From the NCBI GenBank assembly GCA_000702685.1, contig JNJD01000013.1:1-64000 (forward strand): a stretch of DNA of 64,000 nt, read 5' to 3'. How positions within the stretch are numbered: the first letter of the stretch is position 1; every line of letters begins with the position of its first letter. Shown piece by piece: positions 1 through 60,220 of this stretch. The translations under genes were made by a program, and so were the position numbers. This DNA comes from Lachnospiraceae bacterium AC2028. Its GTDB lineage: Bacteria; Bacillota; Clostridia; Lachnospirales; Lachnospiraceae. The notes beneath the pieces were generated by a model that had not been told where the DNA came from, searched no databases, and saw nothing but the letters and a program-made list of their open reading frames with translations.

Positions 1-30
1 TGTAAACAAATTGTAAATTTGAAAAAAAGC

Positions 31-58
31 CTTAACTTTTTCCGGAACAGTCCGATAT
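31..58 (+). promoter_or_regulatory. sigma-28 (SigD/FliA) type promoter of the flagellin gene
   Basis: CTTAAC at 31-36 and CCGATAT at 52-58 are separated by 15 bases. This resembles the motility sigma factor consensus (TAAA, about 15 bases, GCCGATAA / CCGATAT). It lies about 115 bases before the flagellin start codon, which leaves a long leader. The match is by eye; the assignment follows from the downstream gene. Confidence 0.75.
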
Positions 59-70
59 AATGATTGTAAG

Positions 71-174
71 GCAACAGGAAAGCTCGGGTGAGCGCGGATC
101 CGAACCTTCAAGAAGCCGAAAAACCATTAACAGCCGCAGGGAAGCGGCACTACACATTTCAAGGAGGAAATATT
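71..174 (+). promoter_or_regulatory. Structured flagellin 5' leader with GGA motifs (possible CsrA sites)
   Basis: The leader carries ACAGGA at 74-79, a small hairpin with arms GCCGC (133-137) and GCGGC (144-148) whose six-base loop AGGGAA exposes a GGA, and the Shine-Dalgarno AAGGAGGA at 161-168. A GGA in a hairpin loop plus a GGA at the ribosome site is the arrangement known for CsrA repression of Bacillus subtilis hag. That CsrA acts here is inference. Confidence 0.45.
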
Positions 175-999
175 ATGGTAGTACAACACAATCTTACAGC
201 AATGAACTCTAACAGAATGCTTGGTCTTACTCAGTCCACTCTTACTAAGTCTACTGAGAAGCTTTCTTCCGGATACAAGATCAACCGTGCAGCAGATAAT
301 GCAGCAGGACTTGCAATCTCCGAGAAGATGAGACGTCAGGTCAGAGGTCTGACCCAGGCATCTACCAACGCACAGGACGGTATCTCCGCAGTACAGACTG
401 CAGAAGGCGCTCTCAATGAAGTACACGATATGCTTCAGAGAATGAACGAGCTTGCTGTTCAGGCTGCAAACGACACCAACATGACCACAGACAGGAACTA
501 CATCCAGTCTGAGATCAATGCACTTGTTGACGAGATCGACAGAGTCTCCAAGACCACTACATTCAACGAGCAGAGCCTTCTCGACGGAACATTCACCGGC
601 AAGAAGCTCCAGGTTGGATCCGAAGGCGATGATGAGCAGACCATCACCATCAGCATTGGCAAGATGAGCGCATCAAAGATTGGCGTTTCTAAGGCTAATG
701 TAAGTGTTGCTGATCACGACAAGGCTCAGACCGCAATCGGCAACATCAAGACCGCTCTTCAGAACGTAAGTAAGCAGAGATCTGATCTCGGTGCAATCCA
801 GAACAGACTTGAGCACACCATTTCGAACCTTGACAACGTTGTTGAGAATACCACCGCAGCAGAGAGCCGTATCCGTGATACCGATATGGCTACTGAGATG
901 GTTAAGTTCTCTAACCAGAACATTCTTCAGCAGGCAGGTCAGGCAATGCTGGCTCAGGCTAACCAGTCCAACCAGGGTGTTCTCAGCCTTCTCGGCTAA
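175..999 (+). CDS. Flagellin
   Basis: 274-residue filament subunit, exported by the flagellar type III apparatus and polymerised into the filament. The N-terminal D0/D1 region (MVVQHNLTAMNSNRM, then LSSGYKINRAADNAAGLAIS) and the C-terminal helix (ESRIRDTDMATEM to the final GVLSLLG) are classic flagellin. The central region is short, so the variable D2/D3 domains are essentially absent, as in other short Firmicute flagellins. The start at 175 is chosen over an in-frame upstream codon because AAGGAGGA lies eight to ten bases before it and the conserved N terminus begins there. Transcribed from the sigma-28-like promoter at 31-58 and closed by the terminator at 1048-1075. The adjacent glycosylation block suggests that the product is glycosylated. 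Confidence 0.97.
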   Translation: MVVQHNLTAMNSNRMLGLTQSTLTKSTEKLSSGYKINRAADNAAGLAISEKMRRQVRGLTQASTNAQDGISAVQTAEGALNEVHDMLQRMNELAVQAANDTNMTTDRNYIQSEINALVDEIDRVSKTTTFNEQSLLDGTFTGKKLQVGSEGDDEQTITISIGKMSASKIGVSKANVSVADHDKAQTAIGNIKTALQNVSKQRSDLGAIQNRLEHTISNLDNVVENTTAAESRIRDTDMATEMVKFSNQNILQQAGQAMLAQANQSNQGVLSLLG

Positions 1000-1047
1000 T
1001 AACCGGTACTGCAGAACATTAACCAAGTTAAATAGTTCACGCGCAAG

Positions 1048-1075
1048 AAGAGGAGACCGTAAGGTCTCCTCTTTT
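1048..1075 (+). terminator. Rho-independent terminator of flagellin
   Basis: A perfect 11-bp stem, AAGAGGAGACC paired with GGTCTCCTCTT, closes on a GTAA loop and runs into T residues. The GGAGACC/GGTCTCC stem recurs in the terminators at 11181 and 12249. Confidence 0.93.
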
Positions 1076-1077
1076 GA

Positions 1078-1107
1078 TTGTCTAATACTTAGGATTTGTC
1101 GTATAAT
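1078..1107 (+). promoter_or_regulatory. Candidate vegetative promoter for the first glycosyltransferase
   Basis: TTGTCT (1078-1083), an 18-base spacer and TATAAT (1102-1107), just after the flagellin terminator. A second TATAAT at 1128-1133 lacks a good -35 box. Confidence 0.5.
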
Positions 1108-1156: not shown

Positions 1157-2365
1157 ATGAAAGTATTATATATAAATATCACCACTTTTTTTGCTAACAG
1201 AGATATGCTAGATGCTCTTGAGCATTATAGGGACGGATCCGGAAATCCGCTTGAGATCATCCGATATCCATATGTGTATGACGAGAAAAAAGCAAGAAAT
1301 GATCCGGAATTTGAAGCAGAGTTTCTTACTGCATTAAGAAAGGAAACTCCAGATTTTGTGTTTTCTTTTAATTTCCTTCCTGTTATATCCAAGGTATGCA
1401 AAATCGATGGTGTTTGCTATGTGTCCTGGATATACGATAATCCGGAGATTTTTCTCTATTCATACCAGGTGATCAATCCTTGCAACCTGGTTCTGATGTT
1501 TGATTCCAAACAGTATGAAACTTTCCGCAAGGGCGGGATAAATACAGTAGAATACCTTCCTTTGGCGGCATCTGTCCGAAGACTTGATGCGTTGATTCCG
1601 GATGATACAATTCGCTCAAAATTTGAGGCACCGATATCATTTGTAGGATCTTTGTATACCGAACGGCAGCAGTATTATGAACAGATTGTTCCCAGGCTCT
1701 CGGACTACCACAGAGGGTATCTGGAAGGCTTGATCAAAGCTCAGCTTCAGGTTTACGGTGATAATTTCATTGAGGAAAGCCTTCCGAAGGATCTGGTCGA
1801 GGATATGCAAAAGGCGAGCAACCTTTATCCGTATCCTGACAGCGCTGAGACGCTGGAGTATCTGTTTGCAAATTATATCATCAACAGACAGATAACCATT
1901 ATCGAGCGAAATGAACTTTTGACGCTGATCGGAGAACATTTCCCGGTAAGGTTATATACATATAAACAAAACGGAGCGTTCCATCCGGCCGGGGTTACCA
2001 ATATGGGGCCCGCGGATTATTTCGAAGAAATGCCCTATATATTTAAATTAAGCAAGATCAATCTGAACATAACGCTTCGAAGCATTCAGAATGCCATACC
2101 CTTACGCGGATATGATATTTTGGGAGCCGGTGGATTTCTTTTGTCCAATTATCAGATTGATCTTGCCCGTCACTTTGTTCCGGGAGAGGATTTTGTGTAT
2201 TTTGAGGATCGGGATGATCTTCTGAATAAGATAGAGTATTACTTATCCCATGAGGACGAACGCAGTGCCATAGCACATAATGCTCACGAGAAAATCACCC
2301 GTGAGCATACTTTTGATGTGAGAGTGGAGCAGATCATTGAAATGGTGAAGGATAGAATGAAATAG
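1157..2365 (+). CDS. CgeB/DUF3880-like glycosyltransferase, copy 1
   Basis: 402-residue cytoplasmic protein of the CgeB-like glycosyltransferase type, with a GT-B-like C-terminal half. The region with GAGGFLLSNYQ (about residue 320) followed by an F-x-D-x-x-D-L block and a closing helix resembles the glycosyl transferase group 1 C-terminal domain. The ATG at 1157 is preferred over a TTG at 1151 because AAAGGA sits six bases before it. It is paralogous to the protein at 6863-8032: both share FSFN(F/Y)xP, a SW(I/V)YD motif and a (T/S)FxGSLY motif. The context, directly after flagellin and with a DUF115 protein downstream, suggests sugar transfer to flagellin or to a surface polymer. The donor and acceptor are not readable from sequence. 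Confidence 0.8.
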   Translation: MKVLYINITTFFANRDMLDALEHYRDGSGNPLEIIRYPYVYDEKKARNDPEFEAEFLTALRKETPDFVFSFNFLPVISKVCKIDGVCYVSWIYDNPEIFLYSYQVINPCNLVLMFDSKQYETFRKGGINTVEYLPLAASVRRLDALIPDDTIRSKFEAPISFVGSLYTERQQYYEQIVPRLSDYHRGYLEGLIKAQLQVYGDNFIEESLPKDLVEDMQKASNLYPYPDSAETLEYLFANYIINRQITIIERNELLTLIGEHFPVRLYTYKQNGAFHPAGVTNMGPADYFEEMPYIFKLSKINLNITLRSIQNAIPLRGYDILGAGGFLLSNYQIDLARHFVPGEDFVYFEDRDDLLNKIEYYLSHEDERSAIAHNAHEKITREHTFDVRVEQIIEMVKDRMK

Positions 2366-2368
2366 TTG

Positions 2369-2818
2369 TTATTCGAGATCTTTTCCGGCATCTCTGCAGG
2401 CGTTTTCGCTAAGATCCAGATCTATGCTGTTCTTGATCATGGTTGATGAAATGCCGTCGGTTCTCTTCAAGCGTACAACCTTTTTGGAATGAGCATTGCA
2501 CCATTGCTCGACAACATCGAATCTGCCGCCTCTATGATCTTCTCCGAGAGCCAGAATATCAAAATCAATTGTCTCGAGCGTTTCGGGACTTACGGTTTCA
2601 TATACGACTACTTCATCAACATCTCTGAGAGATTGTAATATTTCCACTCTTTCTTCGGTGGAATACAGCAGTTTGCAGTCGGGTTTATACTTCAGGACAT
2701 ATTCTTCTTTCTGTACCGCAACTATCAGATAATCTGCAAATTCCTTGCATTGCTTAAAAAGTCTTAAGTGCCCGATATGAAAGTAATCAAAAACTCCGAA
2801 AGTCAGTATTTTCTCCAT
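2369..2818 (-). CDS. Cytidylyltransferase (TagD/glycerol-3-phosphate cytidylyltransferase-like)
   Basis: 149-residue single-domain nucleotidyltransferase. It shows the catalytic HIGH signature at residues 14-17 in the context FGVFDYFHIGHLRLF, YSTEER at 52-57, and the closing TDGISSTMIKN motif at 120-130, all typical of the TagD/GCT family, which makes CDP-linked alcohols from CTP and a phosphorylated substrate. The ATG at 2818 is chosen because GAGGG lies five bases upstream; a longer in-frame start at 2848 would overlap the gene before it. It is the last gene of a leftward trio (racemase, methyltransferase, cytidylyltransferase). It ends three bases from the convergent glycosyltransferase. 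It may supply the CDP-activated group used by the TagF-like protein at 5426-6883; the substrate is inferred and unknown. Confidence 0.82.
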   Translation of the reverse strand: MEKILTFGVFDYFHIGHLRLFKQCKEFADYLIVAVQKEEYVLKYKPDCKLLYSTEERVEILQSLRDVDEVVVYETVSPETLETIDFDILALGEDHRGGRFDVVEQWCNAHSKKVVRLKRTDGISSTMIKNSIDLDLSENACRDAGKDLE

Positions 2819-2832
2819 TTTTCCCTCAATTC

Positions 2833-3588
2833 TCACTCGAAAACCCAATAATAAGTTGTTGTTTCCTTCCTGTTATGAAGATCTCCCTTAGAAAAGGGAT
2901 CTCCCTCGGATATTACTTTTTTATGAGTCAGATTAGATCCGAATAAGTCGGAATATTCACTTATGCTTCTGTATATTGCACTGTAGTTGCTTGTTAATTC
3001 TGAGGAGTAAATATCCACTAAGGTATATCTGTTTTCGGTGCCCACCGATTCTTTTATGTATATACGACAGCTGTCATTTGAGGTTTCATTAAGTGATCTG
3101 AGGCATTCTAAGATGTCTGAATCGTTTATATACATGAACACCCCGGTGATAATGATCACGTCATATTTCATGTACAGATCATGTTGCTTCAATACCGGCA
3201 ATAAATCCTGAAAGCTGCCGACGCAAAATCGTGTATTATCTCTTGGATTTTCAGAAAAATGATCTTTGGCAACGTCTATCAGTTTCTCACTGTAATCTAC
3301 CCCGACATATAAGCCTTCATTTAGATCCTTGGATAGCTCATCGCCCCAGCGTCCAACTCCGCATCCGATATCCAATACTTTTGAATCGCTGTGAATGTTC
3401 AGATAGGGCTTGATCAACGCCTTTTCTTCTATATCGCGCTCTAATGCCAATTCCGGATGATTATCCTGATAATTTACCAGATTATATCTGTGAAACAGAG
3501 ACTTATTGATCCTGTTGTCGAAAAATGAATGGACAGCGTCATCGTCTATCTGCTTTTTCTCATTTATGTATCTGCCTGATTCATTCAT
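2833..3588 (-). CDS. Class I SAM-dependent methyltransferase
   Basis: 251 residues. Motif I, VLDIGCGVGRWG, starts at residue 71, and GVDYS (96-100) places the acidic residue that binds the adenosyl ribose. These are the hallmarks of a class I methyltransferase. The ATG at 3588 is preferred to a TTG two codons earlier because AAGGA lies nine bases before the ATG and only three before the TTG. It sits between the racemase-like and cytidylyltransferase genes with short gaps, so co-transcription is likely. The substrate is unknown; context suggests methylation of a sugar or amino-acid-like moiety used in flagellin modification. Confidence 0.8.
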   Translation of the reverse strand: MNESGRYINEKKQIDDDAVHSFFDNRINKSLFHRYNLVNYQDNHPELALERDIEEKALIKPYLNIHSDSKVLDIGCGVGRWGDELSKDLNEGLYVGVDYSEKLIDVAKDHFSENPRDNTRFCVGSFQDLLPVLKQHDLYMKYDVIIITGVFMYINDSDILECLRSLNETSNDSCRIYIKESVGTENRYTLVDIYSSELTSNYSAIYRSISEYSDLFGSNLTHKKVISEGDPFSKGDLHNRKETTTYYWVFE

Positions 3589-3600
3589 GGTCAAATATCC

Positions 3601-4326
3601 TTATATCATGATCTGCTTAAGAGTCTCGATGGTTTGCTGCAGAGGATTTATGAATCTGAATCTGCCAAGAGCTTCCTTAATATCTTCGTATTCCGTTAAC
3701 GCTGATATAAGCGCCGGAAACTCGGTGCAACCCAGAATTATGCAGTCGGTATTATATGAATTCAGAAAATCTATGAAGCTTGTGCCGATGGATCTGTCGA
3801 TTTTATTTTGCTTGACTGCTTCAATGAATGATCGGATAGTTTGGTAGTCTTTTTCTGCAGGGAGAATAGTCTCAATTCCACGCTCTTCAAAATATGAGTT
3901 GTATACGCGCTTTTTTAATGCTCCTTCTGCAGCAATCACAAGGACCTTATTAATTTCGTTATCGGATAGGTAATCACGGGTGATTTCAATGATATTTAAG
4001 ATATGATTCTTATATTCCGGATGTTTTGATAATACTAGGGGTAGAAACGAGTGTGCTGTGCCACAGACCAGTATGATATGATCACAGCCGCCTTGAATAA
4101 GCCATTTTATGGAATCGGAGATGGAATTGACTATCGTTTCGATGTCTTCTTTGGAGTCTTCGAGCAGGGCTTTTGTGCGTGACGGCATCGTGAAATTATT
4201 ATCCATGCAGATTCTGGGATAATCCCTCTCGTAACCGGTGCCGAATTCTTCAAGTAATTTTTTATAAAAATCGAGAGTAGCATACCCTCCGAAACCACCT
4301 ACAAGTCCTATCGATTGCTTATACAT
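3601..4326 (-). CDS. Aspartate/glutamate racemase family protein
   Basis: 241 residues. The N terminus SIGLVGGFGGYAT is the family's glycine-rich start. The two catalytic-type cysteines are present, C88 in VCGTAHS and C200 in LGCTEFP, so a cofactor-independent racemase or a related isomerase/lyase is expected to be active. It is the first gene of the leftward trio and is divergent from the gene at 4440. Its presence among glycan genes is unusual and suggests that an amino acid or amino-acid-like group is part of the product. It could also be a housekeeping aspartate racemase that happens to be here, but the tight linkage argues against that. Confidence 0.78.
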   Translation of the reverse strand: MYKQSIGLVGGFGGYATLDFYKKLLEEFGTGYERDYPRICMDNNFTMPSRTKALLEDSKEDIETIVNSISDSIKWLIQGGCDHIILVCGTAHSFLPLVLSKHPEYKNHILNIIEITRDYLSDNEINKVLVIAAEGALKKRVYNSYFEERGIETILPAEKDYQTIRSFIEAVKQNKIDRSIGTSFIDFLNSYNTDCIILGCTEFPALISALTEYEDIKEALGRFRFINPLQQTIETLKQIMI

Positions 4327-4439
4327 TTATTCCCCTCACGTATTGCGTTTTACATCGAAATCAATCGAATAAAGCCTGAAATATATGATATTATTATAAT
4401 ACATAAACCCAGTAATATCGATATTTTAAGAGGATTATT
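4327..4439. promoter_or_regulatory. Divergent promoter region between the racemase-like and SGNH-like genes
   Basis: A+T-rich 113-bp gap with TATAAT at 4395-4400 on the plus strand and no convincing -35 box. The ribosome site AAGAGGA precedes the ATG at 4440. Promoters for both directions must lie here or further upstream. Confidence 0.4.
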
Positions 4440-5429
4440 ATGGGATTCAGCGATTTAGGTTGTTTTGAAGATATAAAAACGGCATGCGTACACTATCTTG
4501 CTAAAAACTATGACTACAGCTATCTATCTGCAATGCATCGGAAGAATAGGGAATGCGGAGCAGATACGATAATAGTGGGCAGCTCCCATTCCATGAATGG
4601 TATTGTTGAAGGGGAGTTGGAAGCTGCGGGAGATGTTATCCAATTCAGCATATCTTCACAGGATCTGTTTTATGATTATGAACATGTGAAAAAAGCTGTG
4701 CAGGAAGCAAAAAGACCTATAAAACGCTGTCTGATCAATCTGGGGTATTATACGCTTTTTCATGATCTTTCACTGAGCAAGCTTACGCGTGAATTCATTC
4801 CGTCAACTTATCTGAATATATTTGGCGTGGAGGCGTTTCATAATTGGACGGATGCCGAAAGAATAGATCCTATGTCTCAGGTGACATACGACGAGTCGGT
4901 TTATCCAAAAGAATTAATTGAAGGCATGTGCAGGTTTTGGGCGGAGAATGTCTTGCTGGAGCAGGGGTCATACTATGGATTGCTTCGTACCCGCGAAAGT
5001 GTCAATATGCTTGGAGTAAAGAAGGTTAATTGGGGAGAGCTGACTGCCGATGAACGCAGAGAATATGCGGAAAACAGGGTGCTGAACGGTCATAATAAGC
5101 ATATAGAACATACCGAAACCAGGGAAGAAAACGGAAGGATTCTTTCCGATATGGTTTCTTTTCTATGGGACAATCATATAAAGGTCTATTTTTTCATCAT
5201 GCCGTATACGGACTATTATATGAGTGTGATCGATACAAGATATAAAGAAGATATCGTTAAGACATTGAATGACTTGCCCTATCCGGTCGAGTTTTTCGAT
5301 ATGAACGATCTTTCCGGTACATTTACCGACGAGGATTTTCTTGATTCCGATCATTTGAATCTGCAGGGCGCACACAAAGCGACAGCCTTATTAAATGACT
5401 TTATCGTTATGGTGGAGGGGGAACTATGA
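4440..5429 (+). CDS. SGNH/GDSL-like hydrolase-fold protein
   Basis: 329 residues without a signal peptide. IIVGSSHSMNG (residues 44-54) resembles block I of SGNH proteins, with a serine at 48 or 49. The C-terminal DSDHLNLQGA (from 302) matches the block V D-x-x-H pattern. Proteins of this type are often linked to cell-surface polysaccharide O-acylation or deacylation. The start overlaps no other gene and has AGAGGA before it. The 3' end overlaps the next start by four bases (ATGA), so the two are translationally coupled. A role in trimming or acylating the modification is inference. Confidence 0.62.
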   Translation: MGFSDLGCFEDIKTACVHYLAKNYDYSYLSAMHRKNRECGADTIIVGSSHSMNGIVEGELEAAGDVIQFSISSQDLFYDYEHVKKAVQEAKRPIKRCLINLGYYTLFHDLSLSKLTREFIPSTYLNIFGVEAFHNWTDAERIDPMSQVTYDESVYPKELIEGMCRFWAENVLLEQGSYYGLLRTRESVNMLGVKKVNWGELTADERREYAENRVLNGHNKHIEHTETREENGRILSDMVSFLWDNHIKVYFFIMPYTDYYMSVIDTRYKEDIVKTLNDLPYPVEFFDMNDLSGTFTDEDFLDSDHLNLQGAHKATALLNDFIVMVEGEL

Positions 5430-6883
5430 ATCAGGCAATGGTCACATATTATTCGACACTGGTCGATGAGTTGCTGGTGGGAATAGATAACGGAGATTTT
5501 GCCAAGGAGATCATTCCCGATAAGTATAAGTGGGAACATCTTTTAGCACTTTATCTGTTAAAGGATTCTCTTGACGGAGCTGAGGAACTGTTCACTCAGC
5601 TATATGATCTTGCCATAGAAAATGCGGAAAGACATATAAAACAGAAGGCTCAAAACGGTGAGACTGTTGATGTTGCTTTTCAAAGTTACTCGGCTGCACA
5701 GTGGCCTGCAGAGGATGTTTACCGCAAACTCGAAAAAACACCGAATGTCAAAGTTAAAGTTGTTGTTTCTCCTCTGGTAGACAGGAGTGAGGAAAGCAGC
5801 CTGGATTCTTATATTAAAACGCTGAATTGGTTTAAGGAAAATGATCATAACGTTGTGGAGGGCTATGATCCGAAAACACATGAAATATATAACTGGGACC
5901 AAATGGGAGGATATCCGGATATTCTCTATCAATTGTCTTCCTGGTTTATGAGCCTTCCACGCGTTCAATGGTATAGCAAACTGCCGCTAAGATGTTTAGT
6001 GGCATATATTCCGTATGGAATGTATCTGGCAGACAATTCCGACGGTTCTTTTGCGATTCATGCTGTGTATAACAAGGAATTTTTCAATACGATCTGGAGA
6101 TCATACTGCGACTCGAGATTTAATCTTGACGGTTATAAGAAGTATCAATTGCTGGGCGGGAAAAATATTAGATATTCCGGTTATTCCAAGATGGATTTCT
6201 TTTACAGGGATAAAGAATATTCGGAAGATGATATCTTAAAAATCTGGAAGATTCCCGTTGGTAAGAAGCCTGATGAAGTTAAGAAAGTAATTATAGCGCC
6301 TCATTACAGCGTGGGAGATGAAGGTGTAATACTTTTATCAACCTTTAAGAAAAATGCATGGTTTTGGCTTTATCTTGCGGAAAGGTATAAAGACAGCATT
6401 TCATTCATCTTTAAGCCTCATCCAAATCTTCGCTGGTCATCGGTAGAACACAAATTATTCAAGTCGTATGAAGAATACGATGAATATATTGCCAAGTGGA
6501 ATGATATGCCCAATTGTAAAGCTGTTCAGGAAGCGGATTATCTCGAGATATTTAAGACTTCGGATGCAATGATAATGGACAGCGGTTCATTCTTGGCAGA
6601 GTATCTATACACAGGAAAGCCGTTGCTGTTTTTGACACGTCCTGAGCAGTGCTTTTTGGCGATAGGCAGGAAATTGGTGGATTCGTACTATACGACGTCC
6701 GGTGATGCCTATACCGAGATAGAGCGCTTTGTCGATGATGTTGTGATCGGTGGAGATGATTCCATGAAAAACCTGCGTTCAAAGGTTTTCGAGGAAGAAT
6801 ATGATTATGTGAAGACCAATGGAATGACGGCTTCGGATTATATCTGCAGTGACATTTTTGATCTAATCGGCATTGAACACTGA
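5426..6883 (+). CDS. CDP-glycerol glycerophosphotransferase-like (TagF-like) protein
   Basis: 485 residues. The C-terminal half has the TagF-type signature order: IIAPHYS at about residue 289, FKPHPNL at about 328 and DSGSFLAEYLYTGKP at about 384. In the family these bind the CDP-alcohol and catalyse phosphodiester transfer. The N-terminal third is not recognisable. No membrane segment is evident. The ATG overlaps the previous stop, with a GGAGGGGG ribosome site. The 3' end overlaps the convergent glycosyltransferase by 21 bases. With the cytidylyltransferase at 2369 it forms an activate-and-transfer pair, which suggests a phosphodiester-linked group on the flagellar glycan. True teichoic acid polymerisation is less likely because no other tag genes are nearby. 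Confidence 0.72.
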   Translation: MNQAMVTYYSTLVDELLVGIDNGDFAKEIIPDKYKWEHLLALYLLKDSLDGAEELFTQLYDLAIENAERHIKQKAQNGETVDVAFQSYSAAQWPAEDVYRKLEKTPNVKVKVVVSPLVDRSEESSLDSYIKTLNWFKENDHNVVEGYDPKTHEIYNWDQMGGYPDILYQLSSWFMSLPRVQWYSKLPLRCLVAYIPYGMYLADNSDGSFAIHAVYNKEFFNTIWRSYCDSRFNLDGYKKYQLLGGKNIRYSGYSKMDFFYRDKEYSEDDILKIWKIPVGKKPDEVKKVIIAPHYSVGDEGVILLSTFKKNAWFWLYLAERYKDSISFIFKPHPNLRWSSVEHKLFKSYEEYDEYIAKWNDMPNCKAVQEADYLEIFKTSDAMIMDSGSFLAEYLYTGKPLLFLTRPEQCFLAIGRKLVDSYYTTSGDAYTEIERFVDDVVIGGDDSMKNLRSKVFEEEYDYVKTNGMTASDYICSDIFDLIGIEH

Positions 6884-8032
6884 ACTGAGGATTTTCGGCA
6901 GCAATATATCGTATGAAAAGATTTTTTCTGCTTTTTCACGTCCGTTTGCTGCAATCTGTTCACGCTCAGAATCATGAGCCAGAAAATATGCCGCTTTCTC
7001 GATCAGATCATCGGAATTATCAAACCATACGAGTTCGCTGCCGTTTTCAAAGTATTCCGAAAGCTCGGCCTGATAATTTGTAAGGCAGAAACCGCCTGCT
7101 CCCAGTATATCGATCACTCGTAAAGGAATCCCGGTAAGTATACTGCGGAGAGATATGTTGATGTTGATCTTGCTTGTGGCGAAAATCTCGGGCATTTCTT
7201 TTATATAATCTGCAGTTCCGAGGAAGTTTGCTTTGATCCCATCGGGTTTACTTTTTGAATAAAGGTCCAATGAAAATCTGTTCCCAAGAGCCTTAAGGAG
7301 TGATTCTCTTTCCCTTACGGTGATCTCTTTTCTTATCATATTTCGGAATATCTCATCCCTTGCATCATTGTAATCATTCCCGAGACCGATCTTTACATAT
7401 TGAGCCATTTCTTCGCATTTATCTGCATCAAACAGACTGGAGGTAAAGTCCAGCCCATAGACATGAGTCTGTGCTTCAATGATCCCATCAATAAAACCTT
7501 TAAGCCGGTCGGGGAGATATTTAATCTGTTCGAAGAAATGATATTCGTCCTTATATAGCGAACCCAGGAAGGTGATGTCATGCTTGTAAGTGATTGATGA
7601 AGTATTGTATATGTTTTTCAGCTGATCGTTCAGCCTGTGGGTGTTGACCGGAAGCGGCATATAGTCCACTGTTGTTATCCCGTTTGAACAATATCTGTCG
7701 CAGAGGGCAAAATCAAACAGAAATACGTGATTACACGCATTGTTCAGGTTCTTTGCTTCCAAAGTATAGTGGGGAGAATCATAAACCCATGAGATATACG
7801 GTAAATCTGCCTGCATCGCTGCATCGGATAAAAGAGGAAAATAATTGAACGAGAAGATACAGTCAAAGCCTTCGCTTGTTATCTTTTTGCGGATATCTTC
7901 GGCGAATTTTGCATCTTTCGTATAACTTTCAAATTCGTGGCTCCAGAGACACACTTTGTGACCAAGTCTCGTAAAAGCGTCTATACAGTCGTCTTTTGTA
8001 TTTTCATTCCAATAATAGTACAGGATTTTCAT
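6863..8032 (-). CDS. CgeB/DUF3880-like glycosyltransferase, copy 2
   Basis: 389 residues, paralogous along its length to the protein at 1157-2365. Shared features include the FSFNYFP start of the first domain, ISWVYDSPH, a TFLGSLYKDE region, and the C-terminal GAGGFCLTNYQ with a following WFDNSDDL block. It is a leftward single gene, convergent with the TagF-like gene (21-base overlap). It has only a weak ribosome site (GGAAAAG) and an extended -10 promoter candidate at 8076-8084. Two such enzymes in one block suggest two sugar additions or alternative donors. Confidence 0.78.
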   Translation of the reverse strand: MKILYYYWNENTKDDCIDAFTRLGHKVCLWSHEFESYTKDAKFAEDIRKKITSEGFDCIFSFNYFPLLSDAAMQADLPYISWVYDSPHYTLEAKNLNNACNHVFLFDFALCDRYCSNGITTVDYMPLPVNTHRLNDQLKNIYNTSSITYKHDITFLGSLYKDEYHFFEQIKYLPDRLKGFIDGIIEAQTHVYGLDFTSSLFDADKCEEMAQYVKIGLGNDYNDARDEIFRNMIRKEITVRERESLLKALGNRFSLDLYSKSKPDGIKANFLGTADYIKEMPEIFATSKININISLRSILTGIPLRVIDILGAGGFCLTNYQAELSEYFENGSELVWFDNSDDLIEKAAYFLAHDSEREQIAANGREKAEKIFSYDILLPKILSSVFNAD

Positions 8033-8075
8033 ATGGTCTTTTCCAATCCGAATAAAAATGTGATCATTTGGCTCA

Positions 8076-8084
8076 ATTATATCA
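8076..8084 (-). promoter_or_regulatory. Extended -10 promoter candidate for the leftward glycosyltransferase
   Basis: Read on the minus strand, TGATATAAT is an extended -10 element about 45 bases before the ATG at 8032. No good -35 box is present. Confidence 0.45.
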
Positions 8085-8124
8085 TCTGTACAATTCTGAC
8101 GATATCCCCTGTTTTACGGTAATA

Positions 8125-8133
8125 TGATATACT
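8125..8133 (+). promoter_or_regulatory. Extended -10 promoter candidate for the DUF115 gene
   Basis: TGATATACT on the plus strand fits an extended -10 element, 43 bases before the ATG at 8176. It is divergent from the similar element at 8076-8084. Confidence 0.45.
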
Positions 8134-8175
8134 TTATTCGTGGTTTGTTTTTGAAATCTCAATACGAGGTGCGAT

Positions 8176-10350
8176 ATGCTTGAGGATTTTCTGACAGATA
8201 TATATGAAAAGGCCATGACTTTGGAATTAATCAAGGAAGCATCCTATTATTCCAGCATCAGGCATATATATAATCGTAAGGATCTGTGGAATGAAGCAAC
8301 GGCATATATTGAAAAAATCCTTTACGATCTGAAAGAATCGGATATAAAAAAGGCTGCTGAACTTCTGGATGGAGCACAGAAGGCACAGGCCAGCTTTTCT
8401 AACTGGCACACTTTTTCGGCGGCGATAGATACCGAAGTGGTGCCTAAAGTCACCGAATATCTGAAAAAATTCACCGGAATAGAAGTTGATGACGGGAAGT
8501 GGACTCTGGAAAGCTCACAGACCGGATTCCTTACAATTAAGAACAATAAGCTTGGCTATCTGCACAGCCCTTCAGATCCGATGTGGGAGAGTTTTTTATA
8601 TGCCGAAAGCATATTTGACCTGGATGCGGATAACTATTATATTCTTGGCGGCGGCTTGGGATATTTGGCATATCAGCTCTGGAGAATGTCAGAAGGTGAA
8701 GCTGATATATATGTATTTGAAGTTGATAAGGAGCTGAGTGAATATGCCGAACTGTATGGCGTTCTGAGTTTTATACCTGAAGATAAGATACATGTCATTA
8801 CGGGTGATGATACGGACAGCATCCTGGAACAGTATCAAAAGAACAGGCCCGGTGAAAAGACTGTCCGCACTATTTATCACTGGGATTATGCAAATTATAA
8901 AGGCACATATGCGGATTATTTCAAGGTACAGATTTCCAATGAGGTTACCGGAAGGGCCTGTGAAGTCAGGTGGAGAAAGAATTATAATTCTAATATGCGT
9001 TTGGATCATAAATTCTTATCTGATCTGAATAAAAATGCATTTAAGGATGAGTGGGTAGTGGTTGGAGCAGGACCTTCACTCAATGATAATGTGGATTTTA
9101 TAAAAGAAAGCGTAGGCAAAAGAACTATCTGCGCTATTAATGCATCACTAAAATGGTTTAGCCGCAACGATGTACTGCCTGATGTATGTACGGTATGCGA
9201 TCCACTCGACTCGCTGATTCCCCATATAGAAGGCGTTGAGGGATTCAGCAAGGACATCCCACTGGTTGCTGATCCGATTGCAAACCGTGCATTTGTTGAG
9301 ATGTATAAAGGCCCCAGATATTATGTTTTTTCTACAGTGACCGCAATGACTGCCGGAGTTGATAAAGTTGTCGGAGATATGTGGGAGATTGGCGGTACCG
9401 TTACTAGTATGGCCATCGAGCTGGCTTACCGAATGGGGGCTAAAAAGATCCATGTTATCGGCGCGGATCTTGCATATCCCGATGCCGTGACTTATGCGGA
9501 CGGTGTTGGACATGATGTTGGAAAGTGGAATGTTAATGAAGAAACCGTGGTATCGGTTGATGACAAGATGATTCCAACGTCCATCAAGTTCTATGAGTAC
9601 AAGACTATGATCGAGGAACAGATAGCCGCGTACCGGAATGTGGAAGTGATAAACCGATCACTTCACGGTGCATATATAAACGGAACATTCTGCGGTCAAT
9701 GGTGGGAAAATCTGTCGGTTGATTCCGATGTAAATGCTTATTCCAAATTGTTCGAAAAGCTAAAACAGGATAGTAATTTATTGAATTGGAGAAAGAAGTA
9801 CTATATCTTCTGGCAGCTCATTGCGAGAATGGAATCTTTGGGAGTAAGCTCGGACCCGGATACTGAGACAATAATAGATGATGCATATAAGGCGATTTAC
9901 GAGTCTTTCAAAAGTGAACTGAGTTGGGAGATGCCATCAGCCGGGATCAAATCAAAAGGTCAAACCTATATTTTCACGGATGAGTACGCAGATGATAAAG
10001 ATACGGTTTCAAAAAGGGTGCTGAATATAGCAAAGGCTGAGTCGGACAAGAATCAGAAGATTCTGATCGTGAATACTGCCGAGAAGTTAGGCGGAGAGAA
10101 GGTCCCGCTTCATGACTGCATTGAGGCACGGAAGAATAAAAAAACGGAGTCGGTTGATACTGTATTTTTGGGCAATCGGTCATTTACATATTTTCAGTTT
10201 CCTGAGGGAATGCCCGACATAAAGTATTACAGGGCTTTTCTGGATTCCATATCCGAAAGCATCCCGGATAAAATGATCTTGGCGTCAAAATTCAGTCTTA
10301 TCGCAGATTATTGCAGTGAAAAGATGGGCGTATCTTTTGAAAAAGTATGA
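8176..10350 (+). CDS. DUF115 / motility accessory factor (Maf)-type flagellin glycosyltransferase
   Basis: 724 residues. The central domain begins at about residue 292 with WVVVGAGPSLNDN and continues through ICAINASL and VIGADLAYPDA (about residue 427). This matches the DUF115/MptE-like domain found in Maf proteins, which transfer nonulosonic acids or other sugars to flagellin. The N-terminal 250 residues contain a separate region with a GGGLGYLAYQLW motif. The C-terminal 150 residues are not recognisable. Ribosome site GAGGTG. The GT2 gene follows after 12 bases, so the two form an operon. Position and family make this the strongest evidence that the block modifies flagellin. The transferred sugar is not shown: no pse or leg genes lie in the window. 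Confidence 0.83.
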   Translation: MLEDFLTDIYEKAMTLELIKEASYYSSIRHIYNRKDLWNEATAYIEKILYDLKESDIKKAAELLDGAQKAQASFSNWHTFSAAIDTEVVPKVTEYLKKFTGIEVDDGKWTLESSQTGFLTIKNNKLGYLHSPSDPMWESFLYAESIFDLDADNYYILGGGLGYLAYQLWRMSEGEADIYVFEVDKELSEYAELYGVLSFIPEDKIHVITGDDTDSILEQYQKNRPGEKTVRTIYHWDYANYKGTYADYFKVQISNEVTGRACEVRWRKNYNSNMRLDHKFLSDLNKNAFKDEWVVVGAGPSLNDNVDFIKESVGKRTICAINASLKWFSRNDVLPDVCTVCDPLDSLIPHIEGVEGFSKDIPLVADPIANRAFVEMYKGPRYYVFSTVTAMTAGVDKVVGDMWEIGGTVTSMAIELAYRMGAKKIHVIGADLAYPDAVTYADGVGHDVGKWNVNEETVVSVDDKMIPTSIKFYEYKTMIEEQIAAYRNVEVINRSLHGAYINGTFCGQWWENLSVDSDVNAYSKLFEKLKQDSNLLNWRKKYYIFWQLIARMESLGVSSDPDTETIIDDAYKAIYESFKSELSWEMPSAGIKSKGQTYIFTDEYADDKDTVSKRVLNIAKAESDKNQKILIVNTAEKLGGEKVPLHDCIEARKNKKTESVDTVFLGNRSFTYFQFPEGMPDIKYYRAFLDSISESIPDKMILASKFSLIADYCSEKMGVSFEKV

Positions 10351-10362
10351 GATGAAAAAAAT

Positions 10363-11163
10363 ATGAGCAGAGTTACCGTTATCATCCCAACTTACAACAG
10401 GGCGGATATTATAGAAAAATCCATAAGAAGCGTGCTTGATCAGACGTATGATGATTTTACGCTGATCATAGTTGATGATTGTTCGAAGGATAACACGGAG
10501 GAAGTCGTCAAGGGCGTCGGTGATGATAGGATAATCTATCATAGATTATCCGAGAACAAAGGCGCCGGCGGAGCAAGGAATGAAGGCGCACGCTTGGCTG
10601 ATACGGAGTATATCGCGTTTCATGACAGTGATGATCTCTGGCTTCCGGACAAACTTGAAAAGCAGATAAAGTATATGGATGAGCATCCGGAAGTTTGTCT
10701 GGTTTACGGGAAAATGAGAGTTAACACTCACGATGATTCCTATGCATTTCCGAATGAATCGGTATCGGGTGACCTTGAAGGGGATATTTTCCCTTGGCTT
10801 CTCAGACGAAATTCAATCGGCACTCCGGTCATGTTCCTTAGGAAAAACTGTTTTGAGGATGTCGGTGGATTTGACACCTCACTGAGATGCCTTGAAGACT
10901 GGGAATTTGCGATAAGGTTTTCCAAGAAGTTTAAGATAGGGTATATCGATGACATTCTTATAGATACCTATCCATCGGATGCGGGAGTATCCAGAAATGT
11001 CGGTGCGTATTATGAGACAAGATGCAAAATGATCTCACAATACAGAAATGAGATGATCAGTCTCGGAATCTTTGATGAGGTTGTTACCGACATGTTCAAG
11101 ATTGCCGAAAAATCCGGCATTCTTCCCCAGGTTCAGAAGATGTTGATGAGTTACCTGGCTTGA
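10363..11163 (+). CDS. Family 2 glycosyltransferase
   Basis: 266 residues, GT-A fold. It begins VTVIIPTYNRADIIEKSIRS, with VDDCS at 38-42 and the metal-binding HDSDD at 87-91; LEDWEFAIRF is the acceptor-side motif typical of GT2 enzymes. Cytoplasmic, with no transmembrane segment. The ribosome site is weak (GATGAAAA), so coupling to the upstream DUF115 gene is plausible. It closes the modification block and is followed by the terminator at 11181. Donor and acceptor unknown. Confidence 0.88.
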   Translation: MSRVTVIIPTYNRADIIEKSIRSVLDQTYDDFTLIIVDDCSKDNTEEVVKGVGDDRIIYHRLSENKGAGGARNEGARLADTEYIAFHDSDDLWLPDKLEKQIKYMDEHPEVCLVYGKMRVNTHDDSYAFPNESVSGDLEGDIFPWLLRRNSIGTPVMFLRKNCFEDVGGFDTSLRCLEDWEFAIRFSKKFKIGYIDDILIDTYPSDAGVSRNVGAYYETRCKMISQYRNEMISLGIFDEVVTDMFKIAEKSGILPQVQKMLMSYLA

Positions 11164-11279: not shown

Positions 11280-11543
11280 ATGTCCACATTAGAAAAGCTT
11301 AAAAAGAAGCTATATGAAAAGCCGGTGCGAAACGATCTTACGATAGATGAAGTAGTTCGATTGGCGAAAGCATATGGATGTACAATTGTTACAGGTGGAA
11401 ATCATCAGATAAGGATAGTATATAAACCTACCGGAACAGTAATTCCGTTACCGTGTCATGGAAAAACCGTAAAAGAAGCATACATTATTGAATTGAAAGA
11501 ACTCTTTACTGAAATAGAGAATATGAATGGAGGAAAACTATGA
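11280..11543 (+). CDS. hicA: HicA-like mRNA interferase toxin
   Basis: 87 residues with the double-stranded RNA-binding-like fold expected of HicA. The segment GGNHQIRIVYKPTG (residues 39-52), followed by IPLPCHGKTVKEAYI, matches the family's G-S-H-H ... I-P-x-H-x-x-K-E order. The usual catalytic histidine is kept (NH), but the second histidine is replaced by glutamine. The gene is slightly longer than typical HicA because of an N-terminal extension. It is followed directly by hicB with a four-base ATGA overlap. It is predicted to cleave mRNA when HicB is lost. Confidence 0.78.
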   Translation: MSTLEKLKKKLYEKPVRNDLTIDEVVRLAKAYGCTIVTGGNHQIRIVYKPTGTVIPLPCHGKTVKEAYIIELKELFTEIENMNGGKL

Positions 11544-11896
11544 TCAAGTATCCATTTAAGGTATATCAAACCGAAATAGAGGGTCATATATTCTGGATTG
11601 CCAAGAGCAGTTCTCTTAAAGGCTGCGTAGGTCAGGCAGATATTATGGCCGATGCCATAGCCGAGCTGGAAGAGAACGAGAAGGCATGGCTTGAAACTGC
11701 GAAGGAAACAGGAATACCTATTCCGGAAGTGCATATTGAAATAAATGAGAATTACAGCGGCAAACTGACTCTTCGGCTTGCGCCTTATGTACATATGCAG
11801 GCTGTTATGCTGGCTCAAAGGGAAGGCATAAGCTTGAATCAGTATATTAACAACGCTGTAGTTTCACAGAATTCAGCTTTAGAAGCTATCATGTGA
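11540..11896 (+). CDS. hicB: HicB-like antitoxin
   Basis: 118 residues. The N-terminal part is the degenerate RNase H-like domain that binds HicA (GCVGQADIMADAIAELEEN). The C-terminal part, KLTLRLAPYVHMQAVML then GISLNQYINNAV, is a ribbon-helix-helix DNA-binding domain typical of HicB. It probably neutralises HicA and represses the promoter at 11233 through the palindrome. The ATG overlaps the hicA stop; AATGGAGGAAAA gives a strong ribosome site. Confidence 0.85.
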   Translation: MIKYPFKVYQTEIEGHIFWIAKSSSLKGCVGQADIMADAIAELEENEKAWLETAKETGIPIPEVHIEINENYSGKLTLRLAPYVHMQAVMLAQREGISLNQYINNAVVSQNSALEAIM

Positions 11897-11923
11897 TCTT
11901 TTAACGGATATGATCAAAGTATT

Positions 11924-12232
11924 ATGAATACGGATATGACCAGAAAACCGACTCATCCCGGATGCGTATTTCTTGAAGATGTAATGAAACCCAGAAACCT
12001 GTCTGTAACCGAAGCTGCACGTTTGCTTGGTGTAAGCAGAAAGGCTTTATCTGAATTCGTTAATGAAAAGGCAGCACTTAGCCCTGAAATGGCACTTAGG
12101 ATTAGCAAGGCAACGGGCACATCTGTTGAAAGCTGGATGAATATGCAACAGAAACTCACCCTCTGGTATGCTATGCAGAATGAACCGGATAACGTGATTC
12201 CTTTTCCTCTTCCCATAGTAAAGGAAGGATGA
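11924..12232 (+). CDS. HigA-type antitoxin (XRE family), orphan
   Basis: 102 residues. It begins with the HigA family signature KPTHPGCVFLEDVM, followed by a helix-turn-helix (VTEAARLLGVSRKALSEFVN) and SPEMALRISKATGTSVESW. HigB toxin genes normally lie immediately upstream of higA; here the upstream neighbour is hicB and no HigB is seen. It is either a solitary regulator or an extra antitoxin. The ribosome site is poor. A second in-frame ATG lies at 11936. Closed by the terminator at 12249. Confidence 0.82.
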   Translation: MNTDMTRKPTHPGCVFLEDVMKPRNLSVTEAARLLGVSRKALSEFVNEKAALSPEMALRISKATGTSVESWMNMQQKLTLWYAMQNEPDNVIPFPLPIVKEG

Positions 12233-60100: not shown

Positions 60101-60220
60101 AATATTGTTCTCATATATTAATTCTGAAATGCTTATTATTTTTGATAAAGATATTCTTATTTCTGCTTCTTATCTTTTCGTTAAATTGCTTCAAAATTAT
60201 TAACAGGGGGGGCTGATAGT

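What the first reader, a model, noticed from the sequence alone, without database searches (positions are those of the whole stretch)
1157..11163. Flagellin modification block that may build a phosphodiester-linked, amino-acid-like decoration
Seen: next to flagellin lie a TagD-like cytidylyltransferase, a TagF-like phosphotransferase, a SAM methyltransferase, an Asp/Glu racemase-like protein with both cysteines, an SGNH-like protein, a DUF115/Maf-type protein and three glycosyltransferases. Known: Clostridioides difficile type A flagellin carries GlcNAc linked by phosphate to N-methylthreonine, made by a cluster that includes a nucleotidyltransferase and a TagF-like protein. Inferred: this block may make a related decoration, with the racemase adding D-stereochemistry to the amino acid-like group. 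I know of no described system with this exact gene set.
Basis: partly seen in the sequence, partly recalled or inferred. Interest (0 to 1): 0.8.

Follow-up and report, generated by a model that had tools for sequence, protein, structure and literature searches.

The report
Flagellin phospho-amino-acid cap island with racemase
A clostridial bacterium carries, beside its flagellin gene, an island that probably caps the flagellin sugar with a phosphate-linked, N-methylated amino acid, and it includes a racemase, seen in similar gene clusters elsewhere, that may make that amino acid the D form.

Summary
The methyltransferase (MT) is 33% identical over 252 aa to the MT of what gene order and names show to be the Pseudomonas aeruginosa b-type flagellin glycan cluster, whose cap is N,N-dimethylthreonine phosphate (PMC11833859). 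Two other loci near flagellin (L041, L061) hold TagF-like, MT, racemase, HAD phosphatase and nucleotidyltransferase genes in order. In all 6 loci found with this racemase subgroup a nucleotidyltransferase lies within two genes; none of 18 general-racemase control loci (2.4-3.6 kb) matched my references for one. The window is not a member of the known pathway: the genome lacks the type-A HAD protein and nucleotidyltransferase, and a non-homologous TagD-like enzyme stands in. The exact window set was seen in no other locus. I propose that the racemase inverts a phospho-amino acid, perhaps O-phosphoserine. Substrates, D form and the SGNH protein's role are inferred. Against: MT relatives also sit in LicD clusters, so an amino-alcohol cap remains possible. 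New variant of a known kind.

The parts
175..999 (+). flagellin gene (274 aa)
   Evidence: Flagellin_N 156 bits; window 1-1078 is identical to the end of contig C10
1157..2365 (+). glycosyltransferase A, DUF3880 + Glyco_trans_1_2; probable flagellin-sugar transferase (inferred)
   Evidence: Pfam E 5e-24 and 1e-18
2369..2848 (-). TagD-like cytidylyltransferase, likely start 2818; proposed CTP:phospho-amino-acid cytidylyltransferase (inferred)
   Evidence: PF01467 E 4e-17; TIGR01518 76.1 bits against cut-off 165.4; 60% identical TagD in L063 two genes from an MT
2833..3594 (-). SAM methyltransferase, proposed N-methyltransferase of the amino acid
   Evidence: 33% over 252 aa to the MT of the P. 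aeruginosa b-type cluster, E 4e-49; 36-38% to MTs of L041, L043-L046, L061
3601..4326 (-). Asp/Glu-family racemase with both cysteines
   Evidence: PF01177 E 4e-17; TIGR00035 94.1 bits (cut-off 93.1), CuyB model 120.9 (cut-off 190); 46% and 44% to L041 and L061
4440..5429 (+). SGNH-fold protein, possible acyltransferase (inferred)
   Evidence: AlphaFold model, Foldseek best DltD; S49, D302, H305 invariant in 12 of 12 rows
5426..6883 (+). TagF-like phosphotransferase (GT-B fold)
   Evidence: PF04464 21.2 bits, just under cut-off; Foldseek: UDP-GlcNAc 2-epimerases first, also Bcs3 8a0c and TarL 8va1
6863..8032 (-). glycosyltransferase B, DUF3880 + Glyco_trans_1_2
   Evidence: Pfam E 5e-21 and 9e-16
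8176..10350 (+). Maf/DUF115-type protein (PF01973)
   Evidence: E 1e-32; weak match to flagellin modification PseD model, 39.9 bits, cut-off 670
10363..11163 (+). GT2 glycosyltransferase
   Evidence: PF00535 E 9e-41

Best explanation
The block is a flagellin-glycan island whose TagD-MT-racemase and SGNH-TagF parts put a phosphodiester-linked, N-methylated amino acid cap on the flagellin sugar. It works like C. difficile type A and P. aeruginosa b-type without being a member. Proposed steps: glycosyltransferases and the Maf-type protein sugar the flagellin (inferred from families). TagD joins CTP to a phospho-amino acid, giving a CDP-amino acid (inferred). The MT N-methylates it (homology to the b-type enzyme shown; substrate inferred). 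The racemase inverts the alpha carbon (family and catalytic residues shown; substrate inferred), most simply on the phospho-amino acid before cytidylylation, since its family takes acidic side chains, its best curated model is cysteate racemase, and cysteate resembles O-phosphoserine. The TagF-like enzyme moves the phospho-amino acid to the sugar (inferred from family and fold). As the genome has no type-A HAD protein, O-phosphoserine, a normal metabolite, is likelier than phosphothreonine. My odds: phosphodiester cap 0.75; amino acid, N-methylated, in it 0.6 (lowered from 0.65 on re-reading the LicD-type neighbourhoods of MT relatives); D form 0.5; serine-derived 0.35. The SGNH role is open.
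For: MT homology to the b-type cluster, whose mutants lack the cap (PMC11833859, passages). L041: SGNH, TagF, radical SAM, MT, racemase, HAD, NTP transferase, flagellin in a row; L061: TagF, MT, racemase, HAD, NTP transferase, flagellin 7 kb on. L041's HAD and NTP transferase match the b-type ones (28%, E 5e-31; 34.5%, E 3e-26). TagD and MT recur together with a PF04464 protein in L063. A nucleotidyltransferase lies within two genes of the racemase in 6 of 6 subgroup loci; 0 of 18 control loci matched. Racemase C88, C200, R50, K172 align with 1jfl C82, C194, R48, K164. CDP-L-serine is mentioned as known in prokaryotes by PMC10714395.
Against: No HAD or type-A NTP transferase in the genome. TagD substrate unknown; solved relatives take glycerol-3-phosphate, phosphoethanolamine and phosphocholine. 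The MT profile's best solved relatives are phosphoethanolamine N-methyltransferases, and MT relatives in L062, L065, L066 and L075 lie by or in LicD-type genes with no TagF match. Window TagF did not find the P. aeruginosa record; direct match 20% over 225 columns, E 2e-6. The b-type cluster, L043-L046 and L063 have no racemase match. SGNH unexplained. No biochemistry.
Confidence: 0.5

Rival explanations
1. Amino-alcohol cap: TagD makes CDP-ethanolamine (or a like amine), the MT N-methylates it, and TagF adds the phospho-amine to the flagellin glycan. The racemase serves something else.
For: MT profile's best solved relatives are phosphoethanolamine N-methyltransferases, E 8e-10; TagD's third solved relative is ethanolamine-phosphate cytidylyltransferase, E 6e-16; MT relatives lie by LicD and aminotransferase genes in L066 and L075.
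Against: Closest characterised MT cluster makes N,N-dimethylthreonine. Leaves unexplained why the racemase follows or precedes MT directly in 3 of 3 flagellar racemase loci.
Confidence: 0.2
2. Glycerol-phosphate decoration: TagD and TagF make and transfer glycerol phosphate as in teichoic acids; MT and racemase act on other parts of the glycan.
For: TagD's best solved relatives are glycerol-3-phosphate cytidylyltransferases, E 1.5e-20. A tagD gene has been reported in a Geobacillus flagellin glycosylation island (PMC5109656, passages).
Against: TIGR01518 score 76.1, far under 165.4; TagD's 60% relative sits two genes from an MT; TagF is only marginal to PF04464.
Confidence: 0.12
3. D-aminoacyl ester decoration: the racemase makes a free D-amino acid and the DltD-like SGNH protein esterifies the glycan with it, separately from the phosphodiester.
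For: Foldseek's best match of the SGNH model is DltD.
Against: TMq only 0.38. Of 12 SGNH loci, 2 have a racemase match; of 6 racemase loci, 2 have an SGNH match. No gene of the block matched an amino-acid ligase or carrier family in Pfam.
Confidence: 0.08
4. A mixed island of horizontally gained glycan genes without one common product; the co-occurrence in the window is accidental.
For: Low GC; in the window's genus only the own genome has this racemase; exact set not seen elsewhere.
Against: Tight gene runs and the same pairs in other genomes (MT-racemase, SGNH-TagF, racemase with nucleotidyltransferase, MT with TagD).
Confidence: 0.07

Closest known systems
P. aeruginosa b-type flagellin glycan cluster, PA1088-PA1091 (PMC11833859), here as NZ_CP131792.1
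   Same: beside flagellin; MT homologous at 33%; TagF-type domain, weak match E 2e-6
   Different: window has TagD instead of the NTP transferase, no HAD protein, plus racemase and SGNH protein
C. difficile 630 type A glycan cluster CD0240-CD0244 (PMC10714395)
   Same: flagellin-linked set of glycosyltransferase, nucleotidyltransferase, MT and TagF-like protein; same TagF / UDP-GlcNAc 2-epimerase double resemblance
   Different: other nucleotidyltransferase family, no HAD; racemase added; C. difficile sequences not compared directly
L041 and L061 clusters (Ruminococcus sp. MAG; genome G175)
   Same: TagF 49/46%, MT 37/36%, racemase 46/44%, flagellin near
   Different: they have HAD and NTP transferase instead of TagD; L061 has no SGNH match
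Aspartate racemase (1jfl, 5b19) and cysteate racemase CuyB
   Same: family, both cysteines, R48 and K164 equivalents
   Different: under the CuyB cut-off; CGTAH and AAEGA in place of CNTSH and ATDGx of most control racemases

Membership tests
Type A / b-type flagellin phospho-amino-acid pathway | cluster beside flagellin | tested here: met
   flagellin 175-999
Type A / b-type flagellin phospho-amino-acid pathway | methyltransferase of the PA1088/CD0243 type | tested here: met
   33% over 252 aa to the b-type MT, only plasmid hit; CD0243 itself not compared
Type A / b-type flagellin phospho-amino-acid pathway | nucleotidyltransferase of the CD0242/PA1090 type | tested here: not met
   own genome best E 9.4e-4 over 50 residues; a TagD-like enzyme is present instead
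Type A / b-type flagellin phospho-amino-acid pathway | HAD (phosphoserine phosphatase/ThrH-like) protein CD0241/PA1089 | tested here: not met
   own genome best E 0.064
Type A / b-type flagellin phospho-amino-acid pathway | TagF-like phosphotransferase | tested here: inconclusive
   PF04464 just under cut-off; fold agrees; weak direct match to the b-type protein
Type A / b-type flagellin phospho-amino-acid pathway | phosphodiester-linked N-methyl amino acid on flagellin | not testable with these tools
   needs mass spectrometry
Asp/Glu amino acid racemase (TIGR00035, PF01177) | family score and two catalytic cysteines | tested here: met
   94.1 bits against 93.1; C88 and C200
Cysteate racemase CuyB (NF052483) | equivalog cut-off 190 bits | tested here: not met
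   120.9 bits
Glycerol-3-phosphate cytidylyltransferase TagD (TIGR01518) | equivalog cut-off 165.4 bits | tested here: not met
   76.1 bits
CDP-glycerol glycerophosphotransferase TagF (PF04464) | gathering score 22.1 bits | tested here: not met
   21.2 bits for the window protein; 24.0 for its L041 relative
DltD D-alanyl transferase | fold | tested here: inconclusive
   best Foldseek match, E 8.7e-5, but TMq 0.38

The most novel reading that the evidence does not exclude
The racemase is a phospho-amino-acid (or CDP-amino-acid) racemase: a two-cysteine, PLP-independent enzyme that makes D-configured, N-methylated amino acid phosphates for surface glycans through CDP-D-amino acids, on flagellin here and on other surface polymers in L070-L072. 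The SGNH-TagF core is combined with at least three different donor-making cassettes.
Probability: 0.35. Interest if true: 0.85.

Novelty: new variant of a known kind. Interest (0 to 1): 0.6.

Why it matters
The two phospho-amino-acid flagellin caps in the papers read both carry threonine, in two pathogens. This island suggests that the scheme also runs in other clostridia with a different cytidylyltransferase and a racemase. If right, it predicts CDP-D-amino acids and a racemase for phospho-amino acids. The names I searched for (CDP-D-serine, CDP-D-threonine, CDP-D-alanine, phosphoserine racemase, phosphothreonine racemase) occur in no held paper. Both predictions can be tested with small soluble proteins. 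D-amino acid caps might change protease resistance or host recognition of flagella (speculation).

Tried and rejected
Sigma-28-like promoter scan: 21 matches in the first 12.5 kb, overlapping spacings counted apart, against a mean of 9.35 in 20 base shuffles. Convincing to me only before the flagellin genes, so no regulatory claim is made. An extra arginine in the racemase (R165), seen, was dropped: in the alignment it pairs with R157 of 1jfl. Racemase profile in the phylum sample: own genome only, 1 of 398. Racemase against plasmids: 72 records, 15 listed, those at most 28.6% identical. TagF and SGNH profiles against sequences of solved structures: no match at E 0.1 and 1. A link to the taurine cap of C. 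difficile type B was considered because of the CuyB match; the paper has no word beginning with racemase (PMC5207245, passages). SGNH family sample: 5 of 199 genomes at E 1e-5, of which G112 and G179 are weak.

Not done: CD0240-CD0244 sequences of C. difficile were not obtained. No tree was built. No signal-peptide program was run. The second structural aligner was not available.
Full report
What is there. The window is the first 64 kb of contig C13 of a 2.77 Mb, 14-contig genome. Two same-family handles, G049 and G031, have contigs of the same length as two Lachnospiraceae records (326,650 and 71,684 bases), so I read the host as a member of that family (inference). Every gene in the finding is at its place. 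On the minus strand racemase (3601-4326), MT (2833-3594) and TagD-like gene (2369-2848, likely start 2818) follow one another closely. On the plus strand the SGNH-like gene (4440-5429) overlaps the TagF-like gene (5426-6883) by 4 bp. Two DUF3880 glycosyltransferases, a Maf/MptE-like protein and a GT2 complete the block. GC is 0.40-0.41 over 2-12 kb and 0.47-0.51 over 14-56 kb except 0.45 at the end of that stretch.

Link to known systems. In C. difficile 630 the type A cap is N-methyl-L-threonine joined by a phosphodiester to GlcNAc. The revised model uses a HAD protein (CD0241), a nucleotidyltransferase making CDP-threonine (CD0242), a methyltransferase (CD0243) and a TagF-like transferase (CD0244); it also says that CDP-L-serine and CDP-L-glutamine are known (PMC10714395, parts 1 and 3 of 6 read). 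In P. aeruginosa PAO1 the b-type cap is N,N-dimethylthreonine phosphate and needs PA1088-PA1091 (PMC11833859, part 1 of 6 and passages). A tblastn search of 72,556 plasmid records with the window MT hit one record, NZ_CP131792.1 of P. aeruginosa. There the hit lies in the row flgL, methyltransferase, HAD phosphatase, NTP transferase, CDP-glycerol transferase family protein, B-type flagellin; by gene order and names I take this as the b-type cluster. The two MTs are 33% identical over 252 residues, E 4e-49. The L041 HAD protein matches the one there at 28%, E 5e-31, and the L041 NTP transferase at 34.5%, E 3e-26. The window TagF matches the large protein there only weakly (20% over 225 columns, E 2e-6) and did not find that record in its own search.

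Related loci. A genome-collection scan with an SGNH alignment gave 13 loci. L048 and L049 match only about 100 residues and are left out, so SGNH counts use 12 loci: the window and L037-L047. L041 (Ruminococcus sp. MAG) reads FlaG, FliD, FliS, FlgN, GT2, SGNH, TagF, radical SAM, MT, racemase, HAD, NTP transferase, flagellin. L061 (genome G175, found by MT) reads TagF, MT, racemase, HAD, NTP transferase, with a flagellin N-terminus 7 kb further on and no SGNH match. L043 and L044 have SGNH, TagF, MT, HAD and NTP transferase without a racemase match; L045 and L046 have SGNH, a TagF match, MT and NTP transferase without a HAD match. L037, L039 and L040 have SGNH, TagF, a TagD and an asparagine-synthase-like gene without MT or racemase matches. 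L038 has SGNH-TagF among four flagellins and no match to my donor references. L042 and L047 have SGNH near flagellin and no TagF match; in L042 it is the end of a 1083-residue protein with a GT2 domain. Flagellin lies in the held DNA of 7 of the 12 (window, L038, L039, L040, L041, L042, L047); L037 is only 4.8 kb long. L063 (genome G052) has MT (48%), a PF04464 protein (46.8 bits) and a 60% identical TagD in a row, with no racemase, SGNH or flagellin match in 20 kb. Reading: an SGNH-TagF core with exchangeable donor cassettes: MT+NTP transferase with or without HAD and racemase; TagD+Asn-synthase-like; TagD+MT+racemase in the window.

MT relatives that do not fit. The MT search found 8 places in 7 of 396 family genomes at E 1e-30 and 1 further genome among 391 of the class at E 1e-40, so 9 places in all. 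At 4 of these 9 (window, L061, L063, L046) MT lies with a TagF-like and a nucleotidyltransferase gene. The other five differ: L062 (LicD and TagD-like genes about 3 kb off), L064 (no clear partner), L065 (MT within a LicD-type protein), L066 (LicD, IspD, aminotransferase and weak NTP transferase match, near flagellins) and L075 (LicD, weak NTP transferase match). The MT family therefore serves more than one kind of cluster, which keeps the amino-alcohol rival alive.

The racemase. A profile of the window, L041 and L061 racemases found relatives at E 1e-35 or better in 4 of 391 class genomes (own, G596, G637, G658), 1 of 398 phylum genomes (own), 1 of 29 genomes of G175's genus (itself) and 2 of 2 of G596's family (the same two). 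In the window's genus 17 of 31 genomes have some match, but every match except the window's is 25-29% identical. In L070 and L071 (G596, G658) the racemase gene overlaps an NTP transferase gene by 4 bp and is followed by a TagF-like gene (L070: PF04464 21.8 bits, just under cut-off; L071: its homologue) and a GT2; in L070 the next gene looks like a flippase (my reading of its sequence, no search). In L072 (G637) it overlaps an NTP transferase gene too. These NTP transferases resemble the L041 one only weakly (40, 36 and 15 bits). So 6 of 6 loci have a nucleotidyltransferase within two genes of the racemase and 5 of 6 a TagF-like gene (not L072). Three of the six were found by racemase alone. 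Flagellin is near in 3 of 6 (window, L041, L061); L071 is a 6.3 kb contig. Control: the 18 other racemase loci (L019-L036, 2.4-3.6 kb long) were searched with the same references; none matched a nucleotidyltransferase, TagF or MT. In one of them, L033, even the racemase did not match at that threshold, and the control sees only relatives of my references. C88, C200, R50 and K172 align with C82, C194, R48 and K164 of 1jfl (their roles are recalled). The three flagellar racemases have CGTAH and AAEGA where most controls have CNTSH and ATDGx; L070-L072 have CNTSH and ATEGT. The best curated model is cysteate racemase, under its cut-off.

What is missing. The genome has no relative of the L041 HAD protein (best E 0.064) or of its NTP transferase (best E 9.4e-4 over 50 residues). 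Hence the window cannot be filed as type A. TagD's substrate is open: solved relatives include glycerol-3-phosphate, ethanolamine-phosphate and choline-phosphate cytidylyltransferases. The MT profile's best solved relatives are phosphoethanolamine N-methyltransferases.

SGNH and TagF. The SGNH model (pLDDT 88.4) matches SGNH proteins, DltD first (E 8.7e-5, TMq 0.38); S49, D302 and H305 are invariant in 12 rows. The TagF model (pLDDT 81.9; residues about 204-249 poor) is GT-B: UDP-GlcNAc 2-epimerases first, then among the 50 listed the capsule enzyme 8a0c (TMq 0.51, the highest listed) and TarL with CDP-ribitol 8va1. PMC10714395 reports the same double resemblance for CD0244.

A second phosphodiester module. 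The last 1078 bases of C10 equal window 1-1078, so C10 probably adjoins C13 there, or the flagellin is duplicated. C10's end carries FlaG, FliD, FliS (my reading), a FlgN match, a 767-residue LicD protein, and ribulose-phosphate 3-epimerase-like, IspD-like and zinc dehydrogenase genes, then two flagellins. By family this looks like a CDP-pentitol and LicD transfer set, so the flagellin may carry a second phosphodiester unit (inference, outside the window).

Literature. Paper searches listed no paper that, by title and start of abstract, puts a racemase in a flagellin phosphodiester cluster; one search found CDP-L-threonine in one paper (PMC10714395) and the other five names in none. These cover only the held open-access library. 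PMC13317340 holds none of six terms asked. PMC5109656 (passages) reports a tagD gene in a Geobacillus flagellin island.

Verdict. New variant of a known kind.

Noticed in passing
L013 (G000:C10:222000-233835) 4959-9708: LicD-domain protein, ribulose-phosphate 3-epimerase-like, IspD/TarI-like and zinc dehydrogenase genes between FliS/FlgN and two flagellins: looks like a CDP-pentitol plus LicD module for flagellin.
   Followed up: partly
window 1-1078 and end of contig C10: 1078 bases with flagellin are identical at both contig ends; contigs probably adjoin there or the flagellin is duplicated.
   Followed up: partly
L037 351-1895; L039 1-1208; L040 2201-3720: TagD beside an asparagine-synthase-like protein without a matching MT or racemase, with the same SGNH-TagF pair: a different donor cassette.
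   Followed up: partly
L070 8253-10889; L071 3058-5694; L072 9561-11023: The same racemase subgroup overlapping an NTP transferase gene in other clostridial families, with no flagellin match in the held DNA.
   Followed up: partly
L077 4490-10155 (NZ_CP140104.1): The best plasmid match of window TagF (28.6%) follows a PEP-utilizing enzyme, a gamma-glutamyl hydrolase and a phosphocholine cytidylyltransferase family gene, like the Campylobacter O-methyl phosphoramidate set (likeness recalled).
   Followed up: no
L076 (NZ_CP131792.1 400297-418899): An 847 kb plasmid record of P. aeruginosa, typed conjugative, carries flagellar genes flgF to fliD with the b-type glycan cluster.
   Followed up: no
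L066 2898-10707; L075 4996-10734: Relatives of the MT lie with LicD, weak NTP-transferase matches and, in L066, an aminotransferase gene, suggesting other N-methylated phospho-amines.
   Followed up: no
L015 11226-11612 (same place as L046 9222-9608): The nucleotidyltransferase frame is short (128 aa) and looks interrupted; assembly error or real is unknown.
   Followed up: no
window 11280-12232: HicA-like frame (19.9 bits, under cut-off) followed by a HicB-like and a HigA-like frame (my reading) directly after the block.
   Followed up: no
window 57824-61954: Low-GC (0.34-0.35), strongly G-skewed stretch with two long frames that bear CxxC pairs like zinc ribbons.
   Followed up: no
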